In this document: one piece after another, positions 16,204-25,274 of the stretch | Position numbering within the stretch: position 1 is the first letter of the stretch | Layout of the letters: each line of letters begins with the position of its first letter | NCBI GenBank assembly: GCA_016932735.1 | Contig: JAFGCI010000002.1 | Location: 1-64,000, forward strand | Direction: 5' to 3' | Length of the DNA stretch: 64,000 bases | Source of the DNA: Candidatus Aenigmatarchaeota archaeon | GTDB lineage: Archaea; Aenigmatarchaeota; Aenigmatarchaeia; QMZP01; QMZT01 | Notes under the pieces: model-generated | The model's database searches: none | What the model was told of the DNA's origin: nothing | What the model saw: only the letters and a program-made list of their open reading frames with translations | Position numbers and translations under genes: made by a program

Positions 16204-16752
16204 ATGATGGCTGAAGCAAAAATAGTTTTTGAAGGGTATACATCTATAGATGCCAACGGAAGGTCTTGCTCAACCGTAACGCTTGTTAGGGATGAAGAAA
16301 TTGCAATGATTATTGACCCGGGAACCCTGCCCGACCAGAAAGTATTGATAGATGCGCTGAAGAATGAAGGGCTTTCCATAGACGACATTAACATAGTCGG
16401 TCTCACTCATTCCCACATGGACCACTTCAGAAACATCGGAATGTTTCCAAAAGCGAAGGTCATCGACTACTGGGGATGGTGGATCAATGATTTTTGGAAA
16501 AAGTCTGACGGAAATATTTCAGAAAACATTTCAATAATCAAAACTCCCGGCCACACAAAAGACAGCATAACTTTTCTTGTAAAGACTGAAAGGGGAAAGG
16601 TAGCAATATGCGGAGACGTTCTCTGGAAAAATGACCTGCTTCATAAAGACCCTTTTGCAGAGGACCTGAAAGAGCTTGATAAAAGCAGAAAAAAAGTCCT
16701 TGAAATAGCCGATTACATAATACCCGGACATGGAAAGATGTTCAAGACCTAA
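16204..16752 (+). CDS. Metallo-beta-lactamase fold hydrolase (MBLAC1-like)
   Basis: 182 residues. The metal motif HSHMDH is in GLTHSHMDHFRNIG; a later His (TPGHTKDS), the Asp in ICGDVLW and the final His in IIPGHGK complete the dinuclear zinc site. The compact size and the LFP/MFP segment after the HxHxDH motif resemble the MBLAC1 branch. It is a hydrolase in the cytoplasm with unknown substrate. A TATA-like AATTTATATT lies about 25 bases before the start, so it is probably leaderless. The end overlaps the convergent nuclease gene by 4 bases. Confidence 0.88.
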   Translation: MMAEAKIVFEGYTSIDANGRSCSTVTLVRDEEIAMIIDPGTLPDQKVLIDALKNEGLSIDDINIVGLTHSHMDHFRNIGMFPKAKVIDYWGWWINDFWKKSDGNISENISIIKTPGHTKDSITFLVKTERGKVAICGDVLWKNDLLHKDPFAEDLKELDKSRKKVLEIADYIIPGHGKMFKT

Positions 16753-17936
16753 TCCTTCTCTTTGAGATAAATCCTTCTCACAATATCCTTCTGGACAAAA
16801 GGCGCAAGCTTTTTTATCAGGTCAGAATTGAGCTTTCCTGCCTGCATCGCCTTTGATAATGCGAACGTATCAAGGCGGGAGAAGTCTTCCCATATACCGG
16901 ACTCCCTGATGATATTTTCCATCTTATCCCTTTCCTCATCTCCGGAATTGGGCATCCTGAAAGTCTTTCCGGTCCATATCCTTGCGACGACTCCTTTGCC
17001 AGCGATGTTTTCAACTTTCTCCTGCTCGGAAAAAGCATAGATTTTTTTCTCGACAGATTTCAGCTCGTCGTCAATCTCCTTTTTTTCTGCGGTAAGTTCA
17101 GCATATCTTGTGACAAGCTTAACGCCGTCATCGGCGCTGAATCTTTCCGGCTCCATCTGCTCGGTCCGGAAAAGATGCTTTTTCTTCGGGCATATCGGCG
17201 CGAACTCGCACCAGTCGCATAGTATCGATTCTTTTGCCGGATATTCTTTAGCGCTGTTTATCTCATCAATCTGCTTAACGATTTCAATTTTCAGATTTTC
17301 CAGCTCGTCATCGTTTTTCTCTATCTTTATCTCCTGATTGAACCGGAGATAATGCCATATCAGATAGATTTTCTTAGCATAAGGATACATCTTCTTTATG
17401 GCGATAGAATAGAGCGCAAGCTGCCTGTCCTCATTAACCTTGTCATCGCTCGGAAGGGTTCCTGCAGTCTTGTAATCATGTATCTCAAATGTTCCGTTGC
17501 CGTCTGTTGCGAGGCGGTCGATATAGCCCTGAAGCATGTACCTCTTGTCATCGAAGATATCAAGCAGGATTCTCTGCTCGATGGAGACAGTCTTCATCTG
17601 GTCGAAAGGCTTATATTTTTCATAATAATCAGTTATGCATTTTTCACCGGTCTTCCTGAAGTCCTCGGCACTGAACTCCTTCCTGACTATGAGAATCTTG
17701 TCGTCGTAATTCTTCTCCCAGTGATTGTTGTACCAATCAAGAAGCTCTTTCAGAGTATCAACTTTCATGAAGCGCAAATCCTTGTAAAGCTTCTCAAGAG
17801 CCTCGTGGACCATGCTTCCCATGAAAGCTTCGATGGAACGCTCAATCTCAGTTTCGACCTTGTCGATGTAGCGATACTTGTATCGGAGAGGACAGTCGGT
17901 AAAAGTTCCGATCTTGCTGTGGGAGAATAACGCCAT
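16749..17936 (-). CDS. RecB-family PD-(D/E)XK nuclease (Cas4/AddB-like, Fe-S)
   Basis: 395 residues. The N terminus has the SHSKIGTFTDCPLRYKYRY box of PDDEXK_1 proteins. Then come GSMVHEALEKLY (His of motif I), the catalytic FEIHDYKTA (D-x-K), and QLALYSIAI (QxxxY motif). The N-terminal Cys plus CDWCEFAPIC near 265-275 gives four ligands for a 4Fe-4S cluster, as in Cas4 and AddB. A helical tail of about 110 residues follows. No CRISPR or helicase gene is adjacent, so it is probably a DNA-end processing nuclease in repair. Confidence 0.9.
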   Translation of the reverse strand: MALFSHSKIGTFTDCPLRYKYRYIDKVETEIERSIEAFMGSMVHEALEKLYKDLRFMKVDTLKELLDWYNNHWEKNYDDKILIVRKEFSAEDFRKTGEKCITDYYEKYKPFDQMKTVSIEQRILLDIFDDKRYMLQGYIDRLATDGNGTFEIHDYKTAGTLPSDDKVNEDRQLALYSIAIKKMYPYAKKIYLIWHYLRFNQEIKIEKNDDELENLKIEIVKQIDEINSAKEYPAKESILCDWCEFAPICPKKKHLFRTEQMEPERFSADDGVKLVTRYAELTAEKKEIDDELKSVEKKIYAFSEQEKVENIAGKGVVARIWTGKTFRMPNSGDEERDKMENIIRESGIWEDFSRLDTFALSKAMQAGKLNSDLIKKLAPFVQKDIVRRIYLKEKD

Positions 17937-20479: not shown

Positions 20480-21181
20480 ATGCAGCCTATGCAGCCTAAT
20501 TCGAATATGGCTTACGATAGAACAATTGTAGTGTTTTCGCCTGACGGGCGTCTGCTTCAGGTCGAGTACGCAAGGCAGGCGGTACAGCGCGGCAACACTG
20601 TCGTCGGACTGAAGACTAACGAGATAATTGTCCTCGGAGCGACAAAGAGCGATGCTCCGCTTCTTGAGAACAACGTGCACAAGAAGATTTCAGAGATAGA
20701 CGACCATGTCGGCGTGGTCAGTTCAGGCCTTCTTGCGGATGCAAGGGACATAATTGAAAACGCAAGGGTCAAGGCGCAGATACACGAGCTCACATACGGC
20801 GAGAACATCTCAGTCACGTCGCTTATGAGGCACATTGCAGGCAACATCCACATGGTCACCCAGTACGCAGGAGTCCGCCCTTACGGAATCGGGCTTTTAG
20901 TCGGCGGGGTCGATGACTCGCCGCATTTATTCGAGACGGACCCCTCAGGGACAATGATAGAATGGAAGGCACAGTCCATCGGTAAAGGCGCTGAAAAGGC
21001 CAAGAAGATCCTTGAGAAGAGATACAAGGACAGCATGAAGAAGGAAGATGCGGTAAAGCTCGTCATAAGCGCGCTCAAGGCGGGCGAGAAAATCCTTACG
21101 ACGGACACTGTGGAGCTTGCAGTCATAACGAAGAACGATTTCAAGCAGTTCTCTGATGAGGAACTCAGGAAGCTCTTATAA
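20480..21181 (+). CDS. psmA: Proteasome alpha subunit
   Basis: 233 residues. The gate-forming N terminus YDRTIVVFSPDGRLLQVEYA is followed by the alpha-type core (GLKTNEIIVLGATKSD, GLLADARDIIENAR). No N-terminal Thr is exposed, as expected for alpha. It forms the outer rings of the 20S particle that admit substrate. It is the first gene of the classical archaeal superoperon psmA, SBDS, rrp4, rrp41, rrp42. Confidence 0.97.
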   Translation: MQPMQPNSNMAYDRTIVVFSPDGRLLQVEYARQAVQRGNTVVGLKTNEIIVLGATKSDAPLLENNVHKKISEIDDHVGVVSSGLLADARDIIENARVKAQIHELTYGENISVTSLMRHIAGNIHMVTQYAGVRPYGIGLLVGGVDDSPHLFETDPSGTMIEWKAQSIGKGAEKAKKILEKRYKDSMKKEDAVKLVISALKAGEKILTTDTVELAVITKNDFKQFSDEELRKLL

Positions 21182-21224
21182 GGCATGCATCAAAGGGCAT
21201 GCCAGATTGATTAATAGTGTTAAT

Positions 21225-21932
21225 ATGGTTTCGGTCGATAAAGCAGTGATTGCAAGACTGGTAAAGAACGGAGAGACATTCGAGGTCCTTGTGGACCCGG
21301 ACAAGGCTCTCGCTTACAGGAAAGGCTCGCCGGTTTCCATTGACAATATTCTGGCCACTTCTGAGATTTTCAAGGACTCGAAAAAGGGCGACCGGCCTAC
21401 AGCAACAGACTTAGACAAGGCTTTCGGGAAGGGAATGGACTTCCTCCATATGGCTGAAAAAATCATAAAGGAAGGCGAAATCCAGCTGACAACCGAGCAG
21501 AGGAGAAAGCTCACGGAAGAGAAGAGAAAGGCCGTTGCGGACCTCATCTCCAAATACGCGATAGACCCGAAATCCAAACTGCCCCATCCTCCTCAGAGGA
21601 TAACGAATGCGATGGAGCAGGCGCATGTCCATGTCGATCCTTTCAAATCCGAGAAGGAGCAGATGAAGGACATCATCGACATGATAAGCCCGATAATACC
21701 GATTTCAGTCGAGAAGGTCGATGTCGCAATAAGGATTCCTTTGGAGCATGCGGGAAGGGCAGAGCCAGTCCTCAGGCGCATAGCACAGGTCAAGAAAGAG
21801 GAGTGGACATCCACTTCATGGATAGTCGTCATTGAGATTCCAGCGGGCATGCAGGCTGACATCTATGCGCGCTTAAACGACGTCACAAAGGGAAGCATAG
21901 AGACAAAGATTATTGGGGAGACGAAGCTGTAG
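21225..21932 (+). CDS. Ribosome maturation protein SBDS homologue
   Basis: 235 residues from the ATG at 21225. It has the domain I pattern (VIARLVKNGETFEVLVDP, LATSEIFKDSKKGDRP), then the helical domain II with LTTEQRRKLTEEK, and a ferredoxin-like domain III ending SIETKIIGETKL. It helps release the anti-association factor from the large ribosomal subunit. It is 43 bases after psmA. The order psmA, SBDS is conserved in archaea, but here Rrp4 does not follow directly. Confidence 0.96.
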   Translation: MVSVDKAVIARLVKNGETFEVLVDPDKALAYRKGSPVSIDNILATSEIFKDSKKGDRPTATDLDKAFGKGMDFLHMAEKIIKEGEIQLTTEQRRKLTEEKRKAVADLISKYAIDPKSKLPHPPQRITNAMEQAHVHVDPFKSEKEQMKDIIDMISPIIPISVEKVDVAIRIPLEHAGRAEPVLRRIAQVKKEEWTSTSWIVVIEIPAGMQADIYARLNDVTKGSIETKIIGETKL

Positions 21933-21967
21933 GAACATTTTATATTTTACGATTTTACTAATTAAAC

Positions 21968-22333
21968 ATGGAAGACGATACGACAAATATAACAAAATTA
22001 AAAATCTTAGTTAAAGAATTCTGCGAAAAAAGGGATTGGGACCAATATCATAATCCAAAGGATTTATCTATTGGGATTGTTACCGAGGCTTCTGAACTTC
22101 TTCAACACTTTAGATTCAAGAATGAGGAACAAATCAAGAATATGCTAGACGACGAAAAGAAGAATGAAGAGATAACAGATGAAGTTGCTGATATACTCTA
22201 TTTCCTGCTGAGATTGGCTCAAATGTATGAAATAGACCTCTCGACAGTTTTGAAAAGGAAACTGGAAAAGAATGAACAGAGATATCCTGTTGATAAGGTT
22301 AAAGGTTTGAATAAAAAGTATTCGGAGTATTGA
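21968..22333 (+). CDS. MazG-like nucleotide pyrophosphohydrolase (dCTPase/RS21-C6 type)
   Basis: 121 residues. It has the all-alpha NTP pyrophosphatase core: VTEASELLQHF supplies the ExxE metal ligands and EITDEVADILYF the second ExxD set, as in DCTPP1/RS21-C6 and MazG. It hydrolyses (d)NTPs to monophosphate and PPi. The stop is followed after one base by the ATG of the helicase gene, so the two are coupled. Codon use (AAA, GAA, TTA) is more AT-rich than in SBDS and Rrp4, pointing to insertion into the operon. Confidence 0.92.
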   Translation: MEDDTTNITKLKILVKEFCEKRDWDQYHNPKDLSIGIVTEASELLQHFRFKNEEQIKNMLDDEKKNEEITDEVADILYFLLRLAQMYEIDLSTVLKRKLEKNEQRYPVDKVKGLNKKYSEY

Positions 22334-22334
22334 A

Positions 22335-24245
22335 ATGTTTAATAGAGAAATCATTTATGATGCACCGCAAGAACAGTTCTTTCAGGATGTGAGAACAAAT
22401 AGGTTAGCGGACATTATGAAAAACAATTTTGAAGCAAATTCTGGAAGAACTGTAAATGATTCAGAGTTCAATTCTTGGATTGTAAATGGGGATAAAATTA
22501 AGAATCTAATAGAATCCTCAGATTTATCAGATATACATGTTTCGTTTGAATACCAGGTTCCTTATACCCAAAAAAGAATTGACTGTCTATTGTTTGGAAA
22601 AAATAAAGAAGATAGGGGTTTTGTAGTACATATTGAATTAAAACAATGGCAAAGGGTAGAGGCCTTAGATATAGAAGGTAACTTTGTTGAAACATATACT
22701 GGTGGAAACACAAGAAAAGTCGCACATCCATCTCAACAGGTAGAAGGCTATCATAAATACCTTCTAGGTTTTGTTGAAGTGTTTGAACAAAAGGAATTGG
22801 ACCTGATAGGTTGTTCATATTGCCCTAATTACAGAAAAAATATTGGAGAGGGACTTTTCAATTCAATCTATAAACCAGTTTTAGAAAAATATCCAGTTTA
22901 TACCCACGAAGATGTTGAATTGCTGGCACTGAGATTAAAAGATTTATTAAGTAACGGGAAGGGGTTTGAAATATTTAATAGATTCATGCAATCTCCCATA
23001 AAACCATCAAAAAAACTGCTAGAAAGTGCCTCTAGAATTATTTCAAACGAATCTGATTTTTCACTTTTGAACGATCAGTTGTATGCAAAAAACGTGATTC
23101 TGGATAAAATAAGGAAAGCTCAGAAGACGGATGAAAAAAATGTAATAGTAGTTAAAGGAGGTCCGGGAACTGGGAAAACCGTGATAGCATTACACATCTT
23201 AGCCGAGATGGCTTCTAGGAAAAAATCTGTTTTTTTCTCATCAAAATCAAAACCACTGATAGAGGCCATTAAACATAAGATAGAAAGGAAGGATGCGAAA
23301 TTGTTGTTTGTTTCTCTTAATCCACTTGTTCCATCGAGAACAAAAGAGAACCAGTTAGATGTTTTAATTGTTGATGAAGCTCACAGAATCGGTAAAACAT
23401 CAAATATGCAATTTACCAAATCTTCTGACAGAACTGATATGCCACAAGTAGAACAATTGATAAGATGCGCCAAAACCTCTGTCTTTTTCATTGACGATAA
23501 ACAGGTCATCAGATTTCTTGAAGTCGGAAATACAGATTTAATCAAAGAGACAGCAAAAAAATATAACTGCCAAATAAAAGAAGTTGAATTGGTTTCTCAA
23601 TTCAGATGCGCAGGCTCAGACAACTATCTAGAATGGCTTGAATCGGTTCTGGGTCATTCCACAGAAAAAATGATGTTCAATCCGAAAAAAGATAATTTCG
23701 ATTTCCGAATAATAGATTCTCCAGAGATGTTGTATAACATTATAAAAGAGAAAAACTCAGAAGAAGGACAAACTGCCAGACTTACTGCAGGATTCTGTTG
23801 GGACTGGTCACAAAAACTAGACCCTAACGGTGAATTATTTAAAGACGTGAAAATAGGCTCTTTTGAAATGCCTTGGGAAACACATGATAAAATAAACCCA
23901 CCTGAAGGTTATGTTCGATGGTATGAATGGGCATACAAACCTGAAGGAATAAAGCAGGTTGGATGTATTTACACTGCTCAAGGATTCGAATTTGATTATA
24001 TCGGAGTCATTGTTGGACCAGATTTAAAATATAGTAAAGATGAAGACTGCTTAATAGCTGACCGTGAAGAAACAAAAGATCCTGTATTGAAAAGAAGCAA
24101 AGAAAAATTCGATGAATACGTCAAGAATATTTATAGAGTCTTGATGTCAAGGGGCATGAAAGGGTGTTATGTGTATTTTGTCGATAAAGAAGTTGAGAAA
24201 TACTTTAAATCTAGGATAATAGTAGAAGGTTCTCTGTTATACTAA
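22335..24245 (+). CDS. PD-(D/E)XK nuclease fused to DUF2075 superfamily 1 helicase
   Basis: 636 residues. An N-terminal domain (about 60-200) shows D83 in RIDCLLFG, E101-x-K103 in HIELKQW, and Q135xxxY139 downstream: the spacing and signature of RecB-like PD-(D/E)XK nucleases. Then comes the DUF2075 ATPase: Walker A GGPGTGKT (275-282), Walker B VLIVDEAH (343-350), the QFRCAGSDNYLEWL motif and YTAQGFEFDYIGVI near the end. It probably unwinds or translocates on nucleic acid and cuts it. The one-base gap to the MazG-like gene and the AT-rich codon use mark a two-gene module of foreign character; a defence role is my inference. Confidence 0.88.
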   Translation: MFNREIIYDAPQEQFFQDVRTNRLADIMKNNFEANSGRTVNDSEFNSWIVNGDKIKNLIESSDLSDIHVSFEYQVPYTQKRIDCLLFGKNKEDRGFVVHIELKQWQRVEALDIEGNFVETYTGGNTRKVAHPSQQVEGYHKYLLGFVEVFEQKELDLIGCSYCPNYRKNIGEGLFNSIYKPVLEKYPVYTHEDVELLALRLKDLLSNGKGFEIFNRFMQSPIKPSKKLLESASRIISNESDFSLLNDQLYAKNVILDKIRKAQKTDEKNVIVVKGGPGTGKTVIALHILAEMASRKKSVFFSSKSKPLIEAIKHKIERKDAKLLFVSLNPLVPSRTKENQLDVLIVDEAHRIGKTSNMQFTKSSDRTDMPQVEQLIRCAKTSVFFIDDKQVIRFLEVGNTDLIKETAKKYNCQIKEVELVSQFRCAGSDNYLEWLESVLGHSTEKMMFNPKKDNFDFRIIDSPEMLYNIIKEKNSEEGQTARLTAGFCWDWSQKLDPNGELFKDVKIGSFEMPWETHDKINPPEGYVRWYEWAYKPEGIKQVGCIYTAQGFEFDYIGVIVGPDLKYSKDEDCLIADREETKDPVLKRSKEKFDEYVKNIYRVLMSRGMKGCYVYFVDKEVEKYFKSRIIVEGSLLY

Positions 24246-24307: not shown

Positions 24308-24354
24308 TAACAGTTAATTATAAATACCCTACGTACAATACAGTTAACAGTTAA
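24308..24354. repeat. TAACAGTTAA motif, two exact copies
   Basis: Copies at 24308-24317 and 24345-24354, with a partial ACAGTTAA overlapping the second. The reverse complement occurs at 57921-57930 upstream of S8e. It is a candidate regulator site shared by translation and RNA-decay operons. Confidence 0.4.
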
Positions 24355-24371
24355 AAAGTACACTTTCAAGG

Positions 24372-24395
24372 TCCGGCAGTTACATTCGAGCCGGA
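24372..24395. other. Short hairpin TCCGGC/GCCGGA upstream of Rrp4
   Basis: A perfect 6-bp inverted repeat with a 12-base loop containing TTCGA, followed by ATTTCTT. It could be a terminator for the inserted module or a leader structure. Confidence 0.4.
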
Positions 24396-24458
24396 TTTCT
24401 TGTGTGCAAGTGTTATAAACGTACATTTAAGTTGATTTGTTCATAGGAGGACGAAATT

Positions 24459-25274
24459 ATGACAGAAAAGAATACAAATGACATCCAGAAGTCCGACGCC
24501 GCGAACGGGAACGTCAGTGATGAGAAGAAGATTGTTGTTCCGGGCGAGCTTCTGATGGAAACGATGGATTACCTTCCCGGGAAGAACTGCTTCAGGGAAG
24601 GCAATGCGATATACGCAAAAAAGCTCGGCCTTTTGAGGACGAGCGGAAGAGTGGTTGAGGTCGTTCCGGTTTCGGGCGTATACAATCCCGAAGTGGGAGA
24701 TATGATAATAGGCGTAGTCGATGAGATTCAGAACGCAGGATGGGTGATTGACATCAATGCTCCATACACAGCATTCATACCGCTCTCAGGCGTAAGGGAG
24801 TTTATCGACACGAACAAGACAAGCCTTAACCAGATTTACGCTGCAGGCGACCTTATCTACGGAAAGGTCATGATGTTCTCGCCATCCAAGTCCGTGCATA
24901 TAACAATGCAGGACCCGAAGGCGAAGAAGTTCACTGACGGGCGCGTGGTAAGGATAAACACGACGAAAGTCCCGAGGCTTATCGGACGCTCAGGCTCCAT
25001 GATAAGCATGATTAAGGACGCGACAAAATGCTTCATAAGCGTCGGCCAGAACGGAATGGTCTGGCTCAAGGGCGAAAACGAGGACATCGCAATAAAGGCT
25101 GTCCAGATGGTCGAGGAGTACGCCCACACGACGGGGCTGACAGACCGCGTCGACGCATTCCTTAAAAAGGAGCTCGGCTCAAGGCCCGCAAAAAAGGAGT
25201 CTCCGAAAGAATCTTTTGAAGAATACTCGAAGGAGTCTGCTTCAAATGAGGAATATGTGGAGGCCAAGGAGTGA
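24459..25274 (+). CDS. rrp4: Exosome RNA-binding subunit Rrp4
   Basis: 271 residues. An N-terminal domain (VVPGELLMETMDYLPG, about 25-70) is followed by the S1 domain (VGDMIIGVVDEIQNAGWVID) and a KH domain (RLIGRSGSMISMIKDATKC). The acidic, Ser/Glu-rich tail after residue 245 is an extension. It caps the Rrp41/Rrp42 ring and feeds RNA to it. AGGAGG lies eight bases before the ATG. The stop overlaps the start region of rrp41. Confidence 0.96.
   Translation: MTEKNTNDIQKSDAANGNVSDEKKIVVPGELLMETMDYLPGKNCFREGNAIYAKKLGLLRTSGRVVEVVPVSGVYNPEVGDMIIGVVDEIQNAGWVIDINAPYTAFIPLSGVREFIDTNKTSLNQIYAAGDLIYGKVMMFSPSKSVHITMQDPKAKKFTDGRVVRINTTKVPRLIGRSGSMISMIKDATKCFISVGQNGMVWLKGENEDIAIKAVQMVEEYAHTTGLTDRVDAFLKKELGSRPAKKESPKESFEEYSKESASNEEYVEAKE

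What the first reader, a model, noticed from the sequence alone, without database searches (positions are those of the whole stretch)
21968..24245. Nuclease-helicase plus NTP pyrophosphatase module inserted in the exosome superoperon
The archaeal order psmA, SBDS, rrp4, rrp41, rrp42 is broken between SBDS and rrp4 by two AT-rich genes one base apart. One is a MazG/dCTPase-like enzyme (metal-binding ExxE and ExxD). The other fuses a RecB-type PD-(D/E)XK nuclease (D83, E101xK103, Q135xxxY139) to a DUF2075 helicase. A nucleotide-pool enzyme coupled to a helicase-nuclease suggests a compact anti-virus or nucleotide-stress system, one that could deplete or sense dNTPs while cutting invading DNA. 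The exosome genes downstream have their own promoter region, as expected after an insertion.
Basis: partly seen in the sequence, partly recalled or inferred. Interest (0 to 1): 0.75.

Follow-up and report, generated by a model that had tools for sequence, protein, structure and literature searches.

The report
Predicted MazG plus nuclease-helicase antiviral cassette
Two foreign-looking genes inserted in a core archaeal operon form a widespread, horizontally moving gene pair, a nucleotide-destroying enzyme plus a DNA-unwinding nuclease, that very probably protects archaea and bacteria from viruses, although nobody has tested it yet.

Summary
A MazG/dCTPase-like gene (21968-22333) and a PD-(D/E)XK nuclease-DUF2075 helicase gene (22335-24245) sit one base apart between SBDS and rrp4 in a Ca. 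Aenigmatarchaeota genome. They have the lowest GC of 52 window ORFs. Five of five other family genomes with a readable locus have SBDS directly followed by rrp4. The pair is not local: 65 of 78 informative homologous loci from archaea and many bacterial phyla carry a mazG on the same strand just upstream (60 within 60 nt). It is patchy (12 of 156 genomes of the phylum), and its tree mixes archaea and bacteria. MazG partners have been exchanged at least five times while the gene order persisted. Neighbourhoods are rich in known defence genes (93 PADLOC families against 7 in matched control DNA). AlphaFold gives an SF1B helicase of RecD2/Dda/Dna2/Schlafen type behind a PD-(D/E)XK fold; MazG keeps the dCTP pyrophosphatase active site. 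Best reading: an uncharacterised two-gene anti-virus system pairing DNA degradation with dCTP/dNTP hydrolysis, related to but distinct from Nhi/AbiO and PADLOC candidate PDC-S41. Some relatives add a TPR-HExxH protease or a LexA-like S24 domain. No experiment exists.

The parts
21939..21950 (+). AT-rich TATA-like stretch about 28 nt before the mazG start; would give a near-leaderless transcript of the cassette
   Evidence: read directly from the sequence; position fits an archaeal TATA box, not tested
21968..22333 (+). MazG-like / all-alpha dCTP pyrophosphatase family gene, 121 aa; metal ligands E40, E43, E72, D75; conserved W24, H28, K98, N102, Y106
   Evidence: Pfam PF12643; PDB relatives DCTPP1/RS21-C6 and 4qgp, profile E 3.7e-25 to 6e-18; residue conservation in 71 homologues
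22335..24245 (+). PD-(D/E)XK nuclease - SF1B helicase fusion (DUF2075 / SLFN-g3 helicase), 636 aa
   Evidence: Pfam PF09848 E 5e-90; AlphaFold model pLDDT 90.1, pTM 0.80; Foldseek to SF1B helicases
22335..23054 (+). N-terminal nuclease domain (residues 1-240): E72, D83, E101-x-K103, Q135-x3-Y139
   Evidence: invariant in 82 of 82 homologues covering it; topology alpha42-61, beta68-74, beta81-89, beta95-102, alpha132-146, beta156-163, pLDDT 93.9; weak Foldseek hits mostly PD-(D/E)XK
23136..24185 (+). SF1B helicase core (residues 268-617): Walker A GGPGTGK 275-281, DEAH 347-350, QFR 422-424, QGFEFDY 549-555
21156..21932 (+). SBDS, upstream flank of the insertion
   Evidence: homologues 53-79% identical in 6 family genomes
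24459..25274 (+). rrp4 exosome subunit, downstream flank; directly follows SBDS in 5 of 5 family genomes outside the genus
24318..24329 (+). TATA-like box (ATTATAAATACC) between the cassette and rrp4: the exosome genes have their own putative promoter
   Evidence: read directly from the sequence; not tested

Best explanation
The pair is an uncharacterised, horizontally mobile two-gene anti-virus cassette. SHOWN BY SEQUENCE AND MODEL: gene 2 is a fused PD-(D/E)XK nuclease and SF1B helicase with intact active sites; gene 1 is a MazG-fold NTP pyrophosphohydrolase with an intact dCTPase-type active site; the two stay together in distant lineages, in tight operons, often among known defence genes. 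INFERRED: on infection the helicase-nuclease loads on exposed viral DNA (ends, ssDNA tails or replication forks, as Dna2, RecD2, Nhi and Hachiman-type enzymes do), unwinds it and cuts it. At the same time the MazG enzyme hydrolyses dCTP, perhaps other or C5-modified dNTPs, to the monophosphate and PPi, so that the damaged viral DNA cannot be re-synthesised. Which enzyme is triggered by infection, and how the host chromosome is spared, is unknown.
For: Operon conservation: mazG same strand just upstream in 65 of 78 loci with enough upstream sequence; 60 within 60 nt, 21 overlapping; 9 of 11 informative loci in the window's own phylum; no MazG hit in 247 kb of control DNA from the same genomes. 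Horizontal movement: archaea and bacteria interleaved with at least 6 forced changes; Aenigmatarchaeota copies fall in several separate places of that tree; 12 of 156 genomes of the phylum; AT-rich insert, with 5 of 5 family relatives lacking it at the site. Partner re-pairing: the archaeal-type MazG clade (99/98) holds partners of both main helicase clades, at least 5 forced switches, while distances still correlate (r 0.32, 0 of 2000 permutations as high). Defence context: PADLOC at E 1e-15 in 136 neighbours of 10 pair loci gives 93 families (Cas1, DndF/G/H, AbiEi/AbiEii, SoFic, LmuB, PDC candidates) against 7 in 121 control proteins of the same genomes. Plasmid copies lie beside type I and type III restriction-modification genes, brxL, and cas3/casA. 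Recurrent neighbours include SRA-HNH, HNH, C5-MTase, Vsr, Fic. Catalysis: nuclease, helicase and MazG residues essentially invariant.
Against: No experiment. In 13 of 78 loci the nuclease-helicase stands without mazG just upstream, including L020, its closest relative (77% identical), so MazG is not indispensable. The window copy is not itself in a defence island. MazG substrate (dCTP) is inferred from homology, and several partner MazGs belong to other subfamilies. The nuclease fold match is by topology and residues, not by a significant Foldseek score. The homologue set was fetched with motif patterns, so conservation of ExKQW and QGFEFDY is biased.
Confidence: 0.5

Rival explanations
1. Nucleotide-gated nuclease: the MazG enzyme is a regulator. 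The nuclease-helicase is held back by (d)NTPs, and MazG activity or the nucleotide drop of infection releases it, as reported for nucleotide-inhibited systems.
For: A review describes Ppl as activated when phage-driven nucleotide depletion lifts NTP inhibition (PMC12904381); the Clover system couples a dNTPase to a nucleotide signal (PMC12265719). Tight operon coupling and repeated re-pairing fit a regulator.
Against: No nucleotide-sensing domain other than the helicase ATP site is seen; homologues without mazG exist.
Confidence: 0.2
2. Pool sanitiser: the dCTPase-type MazG destroys modified dCTP (such as 5-methyl- or 5-hydroxymethyl-dCTP), so virus DNA stays unmodified and can be attacked by the nuclease and by neighbouring restriction enzymes.
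For: DCTPP1, the closest solved relative, hydrolyses dCTP and C5-modified dCTP (PMC7162842). SRA-HNH, MrcB_N-HNH, C5-cytosine methylase and Vsr genes recur beside the pair.
Against: Those neighbours occur in a minority of loci; SRA-type enzymes attack modified DNA, the opposite logic; no virus of these hosts with modified cytosine was identified here.
Confidence: 0.12
3. DNA-repair or nucleotide-stress module without antiviral role: a Dna2-like nuclease-helicase processes broken forks, MazG keeps damaged dNTPs out.
For: SF1B/Dna2/RecD2-like fold; MazG enzymes are known house-cleaning enzymes; S24 (LexA-like) fusions in 22 of 80 loci hint at DNA-damage control.
Against: Very patchy distribution, cross-domain transfer, AT-rich insertion and defence-gene neighbourhoods are atypical of housekeeping repair.
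Confidence: 0.12
4. Two independent passengers: mazG and the nuclease-helicase merely share mobile islands.
For: Trees are only weakly congruent (r 0.32) and partners switch.
Against: Fixed order, strand and near-zero spacing in 60 of 78 loci, kept or re-established after partner switches, is not expected of passengers; no MazG in 247 kb of control DNA.
Confidence: 0.04

Closest known systems
Nhi (nuclease-helicase immunity) and AbiO, PADLOC PDLC02372 and PDLC02350
   Same: Nhi is a single-protein nuclease-helicase; the helicase region here matches the Nhi and AbiO models (residues 240-425 and 239-479, E 1e-15 and 2e-14; 51 and 52 of 52 family members)
   Different: The match stops at the helicase; the N-terminal PD-(D/E)XK domain is not covered by the Nhi or AbiO models, and here a mazG partner shares the operon. 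Nhi is a one-gene system (PMC12904381)
PADLOC phage-defence candidate PDC-S41 (PDLC05014)
   Same: Similar length and a PF09848 helicase in the same place; weak match over residues 6-321 (76 bits)
   Different: A true PDC-S41 protein scores 955 bits and is a separate paralogue, several times encoded directly downstream of this family's gene (L097 tested; L038, L058, L044, L092 similar); PDC-S41 is listed as a one-gene candidate
Mammalian and archaeal dCTP pyrophosphatase (DCTPP1/RS21-C6, 4qgp)
   Same: All-alpha MazG fold, metal ligands and W/H/K/N/YP residues conserved over the whole length
   Different: Those are stand-alone house-cleaning enzymes; here usually tied to a nuclease-helicase
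MazG as a predicted, unvalidated defence domain (DefensePredictor, PMC13092281)
   Same: MazG listed among nucleotide-modifying domains predicted but not shown to act in defence
   Different: The text held does not name this partner; whether its figure shows this operon could not be seen
Dna2 / Hachiman / Gabija class of nuclease-helicase enzymes
   Same: Nuclease joined to an SF1/SF2 helicase acting on DNA; Dna2 is a Foldseek match over 521 columns
   Different: Different nuclease families and no nucleotide pyrophosphohydrolase partner

Membership tests
PF09848 SLFN-g3 helicase (DUF2075) | score above the curated Pfam cut-off over the whole domain | tested here: met
   302.7 bits against 24, positions 1-354 of 354
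PD-(D/E)XK nuclease superfamily | alpha-beta-beta-beta-alpha-beta core with D ... (D/E)xK on adjacent strands | tested here: met
   D83, E101, K103 invariant; topology from a pLDDT 94 model
PD-(D/E)XK nuclease superfamily | significant structural match to a solved member | tested here: inconclusive
   best hits are mostly members (Card1, BstEII, BsoBI, EndoMS) but E is at least 0.035; weak NERD profile hit in a homologue
SF1B helicase | fold match to RecD2/Dda/Dna2 helicases and helicase motifs | tested here: met
   Foldseek E 9e-11 to 2e-8; Walker A, DEAH, QFR nearly invariant
SF1B helicase | 5'-3' translocation and unwinding | not testable with these tools
   needs purified protein
Nhi | full-length match to the Nhi model including its N-terminal domain | tested here: not met
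   only residues 240-425 align to positions 179-330 of 470
Nhi | recognition of phage SSB | not testable with these tools
   literature only (PMC12904381)
PDC-S41 | full-length high-scoring match to PDLC05014 | tested here: not met
   76 bits partial against 955 bits for a true member encoded next to a homologue
dCTP pyrophosphatase (MazG superfamily) | ExxE and ExxD metal sites plus conserved W, H, K, N, YP residues | tested here: met
   all present and invariant or nearly so in 71 homologues
dCTP pyrophosphatase (MazG superfamily) | hydrolysis of dCTP | not testable with these tools
   assay needed
Anti-phage defence system | enrichment beside known defence genes | tested here: met
   93 against 7 PADLOC families in 10 matched genomes; plasmid contexts
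Anti-phage defence system | protection against infection | not testable with these tools
   no experiment available

The most novel reading that the evidence does not exclude
A cross-domain family of nucleotide-coupled nuclease-helicase immunity, in which a MazG/dCTP pyrophosphatase is the catalytic partner or trigger of a DNA-degrading SF1B enzyme. Lineage-specific sensors or safety catches are added: a TPR-HExxH protease upstream in 13 of 80 loci, or a fused LexA/UmuD-like S24 peptidase in 22 of 80. Such a system would join DNA destruction, precursor starvation and protease control in one operon.
Probability: 0.35. Interest if true: 0.82.

Novelty: new variant of a known kind. Interest (0 to 1): 0.62.

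Why it matters
MazG-type pyrophosphohydrolases have been predicted to act in immunity but not shown to (PMC13092281). This family gives a concrete, testable two-gene operon that recurs from DPANN archaea to Bacteroidota and Omnitrophota, with copies in named cultured bacteria (Parageobacillus, Lysobacter, Priestia, Segatella). If true, it would be a system that attacks virus DNA and the dNTP pool at once, and would name a likely function for a large uncharacterised helicase family (DUF2075 / Schlafen group 3).

Tried and rejected
Filing the helicase as Nhi, AbiO or PDC-S41: rejected, since models match only in part. A phage origin: not supported, only 4 of 50,697 phage records and one full-length IMG/VR contig (L135) carry it. 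Insertion at a tRNA or with att-like direct repeats: no tRNA in the window and no flanking repeats, although the sister genome has a tRNA-Pro before rrp4. A simple empty site in the closest relative: not found, the locus is rearranged there. Strict co-inheritance of the two genes: rejected, partners switch. Sequence searches of solved structures gave nothing for the nuclease domain, only helicase matches. Literature: no held paper contains DUF2075 together with MazG, defense or Schlafen; COG3410 gave one unrelated paper; the 2015 nucleotide-conflict paper cited by DefensePredictor is not held.

Full report
WHAT IS THERE. The window lies on a 237-kb contig of a 1.18-Mb archaeal genome. Between SBDS (21156-21932) and rrp4 (24459-25274) stand two genes one base apart: a 121-aa MazG-like protein and a 636-aa protein with a C-terminal DUF2075 helicase, now called SLFN-g3_helicase in Pfam. 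They are the two most AT-rich of 52 window ORFs, and the helicase gene has the lowest GC3. A TATA-like box lies about 28 nt before the mazG start and another before rrp4 (read by eye).

INSERTION. In five other genomes of the family with an intact locus, SBDS is followed directly by rrp4, so the pair is an insertion in this lineage. The only other genome of the genus shows a rearranged site: SBDS is followed by a RelA/SpoT-like HD hydrolase gene, and rrp4 is on another contig behind a tRNA-Pro. No tRNA or flanking repeat marks the insertion in the window. The contig carries archaeal core genes on both sides, so a binning error is unlikely.

THE NUCLEASE-HELICASE. AlphaFold with 52 homologues gives pLDDT 90. 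Foldseek against the PDB returns SF1B helicases and kin: DSH9, RecD2, RecD, SLFN11, T4 Dda and Dna2. The sequence profile independently finds SLFN11 and SLFN5. Residues 1-240, folded alone (pLDDT 94), show the helix, three strands, helix, strand order of PD-(D/E)XK enzymes, with E72, D83, E101, K103 and Q135 invariant. Foldseek hits for this domain are weak (E at least 0.035), but the top ones are mostly PD-(D/E)XK nucleases (Card1, BstEII, BsoBI, EndoMS, EcoO109I, MspJI). 'RecB-type' is not specifically supported. E101, K103, Q104, W105 and QGFEFDY were part of the patterns that fetched the set, so their conservation is partly by construction; E72, D83, H131, Q135 and Y139 are not affected.

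THE MAZG PARTNER. The best solved relatives are mammalian dCTP pyrophosphatase 1 and the pyrophosphatase 4qgp, aligned over the whole length, with both metal sites and the W/H/K/N/YP residues kept. DCTPP1 prefers dCTP and C5-modified dCTP (PMC7162842), so dCTP is the likely substrate; this is inference.

LINKAGE. In 65 of the 78 with enough upstream sequence a mazG lies just upstream on the same strand; 60 are within 60 nt and 21 overlap. In the phylum of the window 12 of 156 genomes carry the nuclease-helicase; 9 of the 11 with readable upstream sequence have mazG. No MazG occurs in 247 kb of control DNA. Independent plasmid records show the pair annotated as nucleotide pyrophosphohydrolase plus DUF2075 protein in Halalkalicoccus and Priestia. 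Thirteen loci lack mazG there, among them L020, the closest relative (77%), so the nuclease-helicase can stand alone.

EVOLUTION. The helicase tree interleaves archaea and bacteria, with at least six forced changes, and Aenigmatarchaeota copies lie in several separate places. The MazG tree disagrees: an archaeal MazG clade with strong support holds partners of both main helicase clades, with at least five forced switches, though distances still correlate (r = 0.32, none of 2000 permutations as high). The same gene order has therefore been kept or rebuilt with different MazGs. I read this as selection for the combination. The MazG alignment has only 120 columns, so single placements in that tree are weak.

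CONTEXT. In ten genomes matched for control DNA, 136 proteins around the pair matched 93 PADLOC families at E 1e-15 (Cas1, DndF/G/H, AbiEi/AbiEii, SoFic, LmuB and candidates); 121 control proteins matched 7. These are counts of families, several of which can hit one protein; the named hits stand for roughly a dozen distinct proteins, so the enrichment in proteins is smaller than 93 to 7. Plasmid copies lie beside type III and type I restriction-modification genes, brxL, and cas3/casA. Recurrent neighbours are SRA-HNH and other HNH proteins, C5-cytosine methylases, Vsr, Fic, RhuM and RadC (Pfam-tested for the HNH, SRA, MTaX1 and methylase examples, by eye for the rest). The family is rare in phages (4 of 50,697 records) and in viral contigs (one full-length).

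LARGER ARCHITECTURES. In 13 of 80 loci, two plasmids and the viral contig, a TPR protein with an HExxH protease-like C-terminus (or that C-terminal domain alone) is encoded before mazG or near it. In 22 of 80 the helicase has a C-terminal S24 (LexA/UmuD-like) domain, with the GxSM serine and the later lysine conserved. In several loci a paralogous nuclease-helicase follows directly; the one tested is PADLOC candidate PDC-S41 (955 bits). Six Prevotella-type loci add a second SF1 helicase. The window holds the minimal two-gene form.

MECHANISM. Shown: intact active sites, operon linkage, transfer, defence neighbourhood. Inferred: the SF1B motor loads on viral DNA ends or ssDNA and the nuclease cuts, while MazG removes dCTP and perhaps other dNTPs, preventing re-synthesis. 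Two variants remain open: MazG as a switch for a nucleotide-inhibited nuclease, with reported precedents of nucleotide-controlled defence (PMC12904381, PMC12265719), and MazG as a remover of modified dCTP. I put antiviral function of some kind at about 0.8 and the joint DNA-degradation plus dNTP-depletion mechanism at about 0.5.

RELATION TO KNOWN SYSTEMS. It works like nuclease-helicase systems such as Nhi, Hachiman and Dna2-type enzymes, but is not a member of Nhi, AbiO or PDC-S41 by profile tests. MazG is on record as a predicted, unvalidated defence domain (PMC13092281). No held paper found describes this pair; many subscription papers and preprints are not held, so an earlier description cannot be excluded.

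Noticed in passing
L067:559-2577, L048:7844-9655, L088:2164-3030 and about ten more; L117:15112-17166; L135: A TPR protein with a conserved HExxH...E metalloprotease-like C-terminal domain of no Pfam family is encoded before mazG (or before the helicase) in 13 of 80 genome loci, two plasmids and one viral contig.
   Followed up: partly
L034:9998-12409, L078, L095, L097 and others (22 loci): The nuclease-helicase carries a C-terminal LexA/UmuD-like S24 peptidase domain with catalytic serine and lysine conserved.
   Followed up: partly
L097:12443-14419, L038:3944-6010, L058:1356-3338, L044, L092; plasmid L117: A second, paralogous DUF2075 nuclease-helicase lies in tandem; the one tested (L097) is PADLOC candidate PDC-S41.
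   Followed up: partly
L065:5431-12596 (Woesearchaeota): A distant member of the pair (other helicase clade) lies beside the same superoperon: divergent psmA-SBDS-rrp4-rrp41-rrp42 on one side and a proteasome subunit gene on the other. Two separate insertions beside this operon; may be chance.
   Followed up: partly
L101:691-1452 (G001, same genus): In the sister genome a RelA/SpoT-type HD hydrolase gene occupies the position after SBDS, and rrp4 is preceded by a tRNA-Pro on another contig.
   Followed up: partly
L048:11979-13685, L049, L051, L059, L068, L072: In Prevotella-type loci a second SF1 (AAA_12) helicase of about 565 aa follows the nuclease-helicase, giving a four-gene operon.
   Followed up: partly
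window 16749-17936 (-): A Cas4-like PD-(D/E)XK nuclease gene (PADLOC Cas4, 7e-14) in the same window, with no cas genes noticed beside it.
   Followed up: no
window 24371-24400: A short inverted repeat (TCCGGC ... GCCGGA) in the leader between the rrp4 TATA-like box and its start codon.
   Followed up: no
G142:C16:44272-46043: The nuclease-helicase of this relative is split over two overlapping reading frames downstream of an intact mazG; a decayed copy or a sequencing error.
   Followed up: no
L114 / L005 (G080): Here the nuclease-helicase follows a gene of at least 479 aa, of unidentified family, instead of mazG.
   Followed up: no
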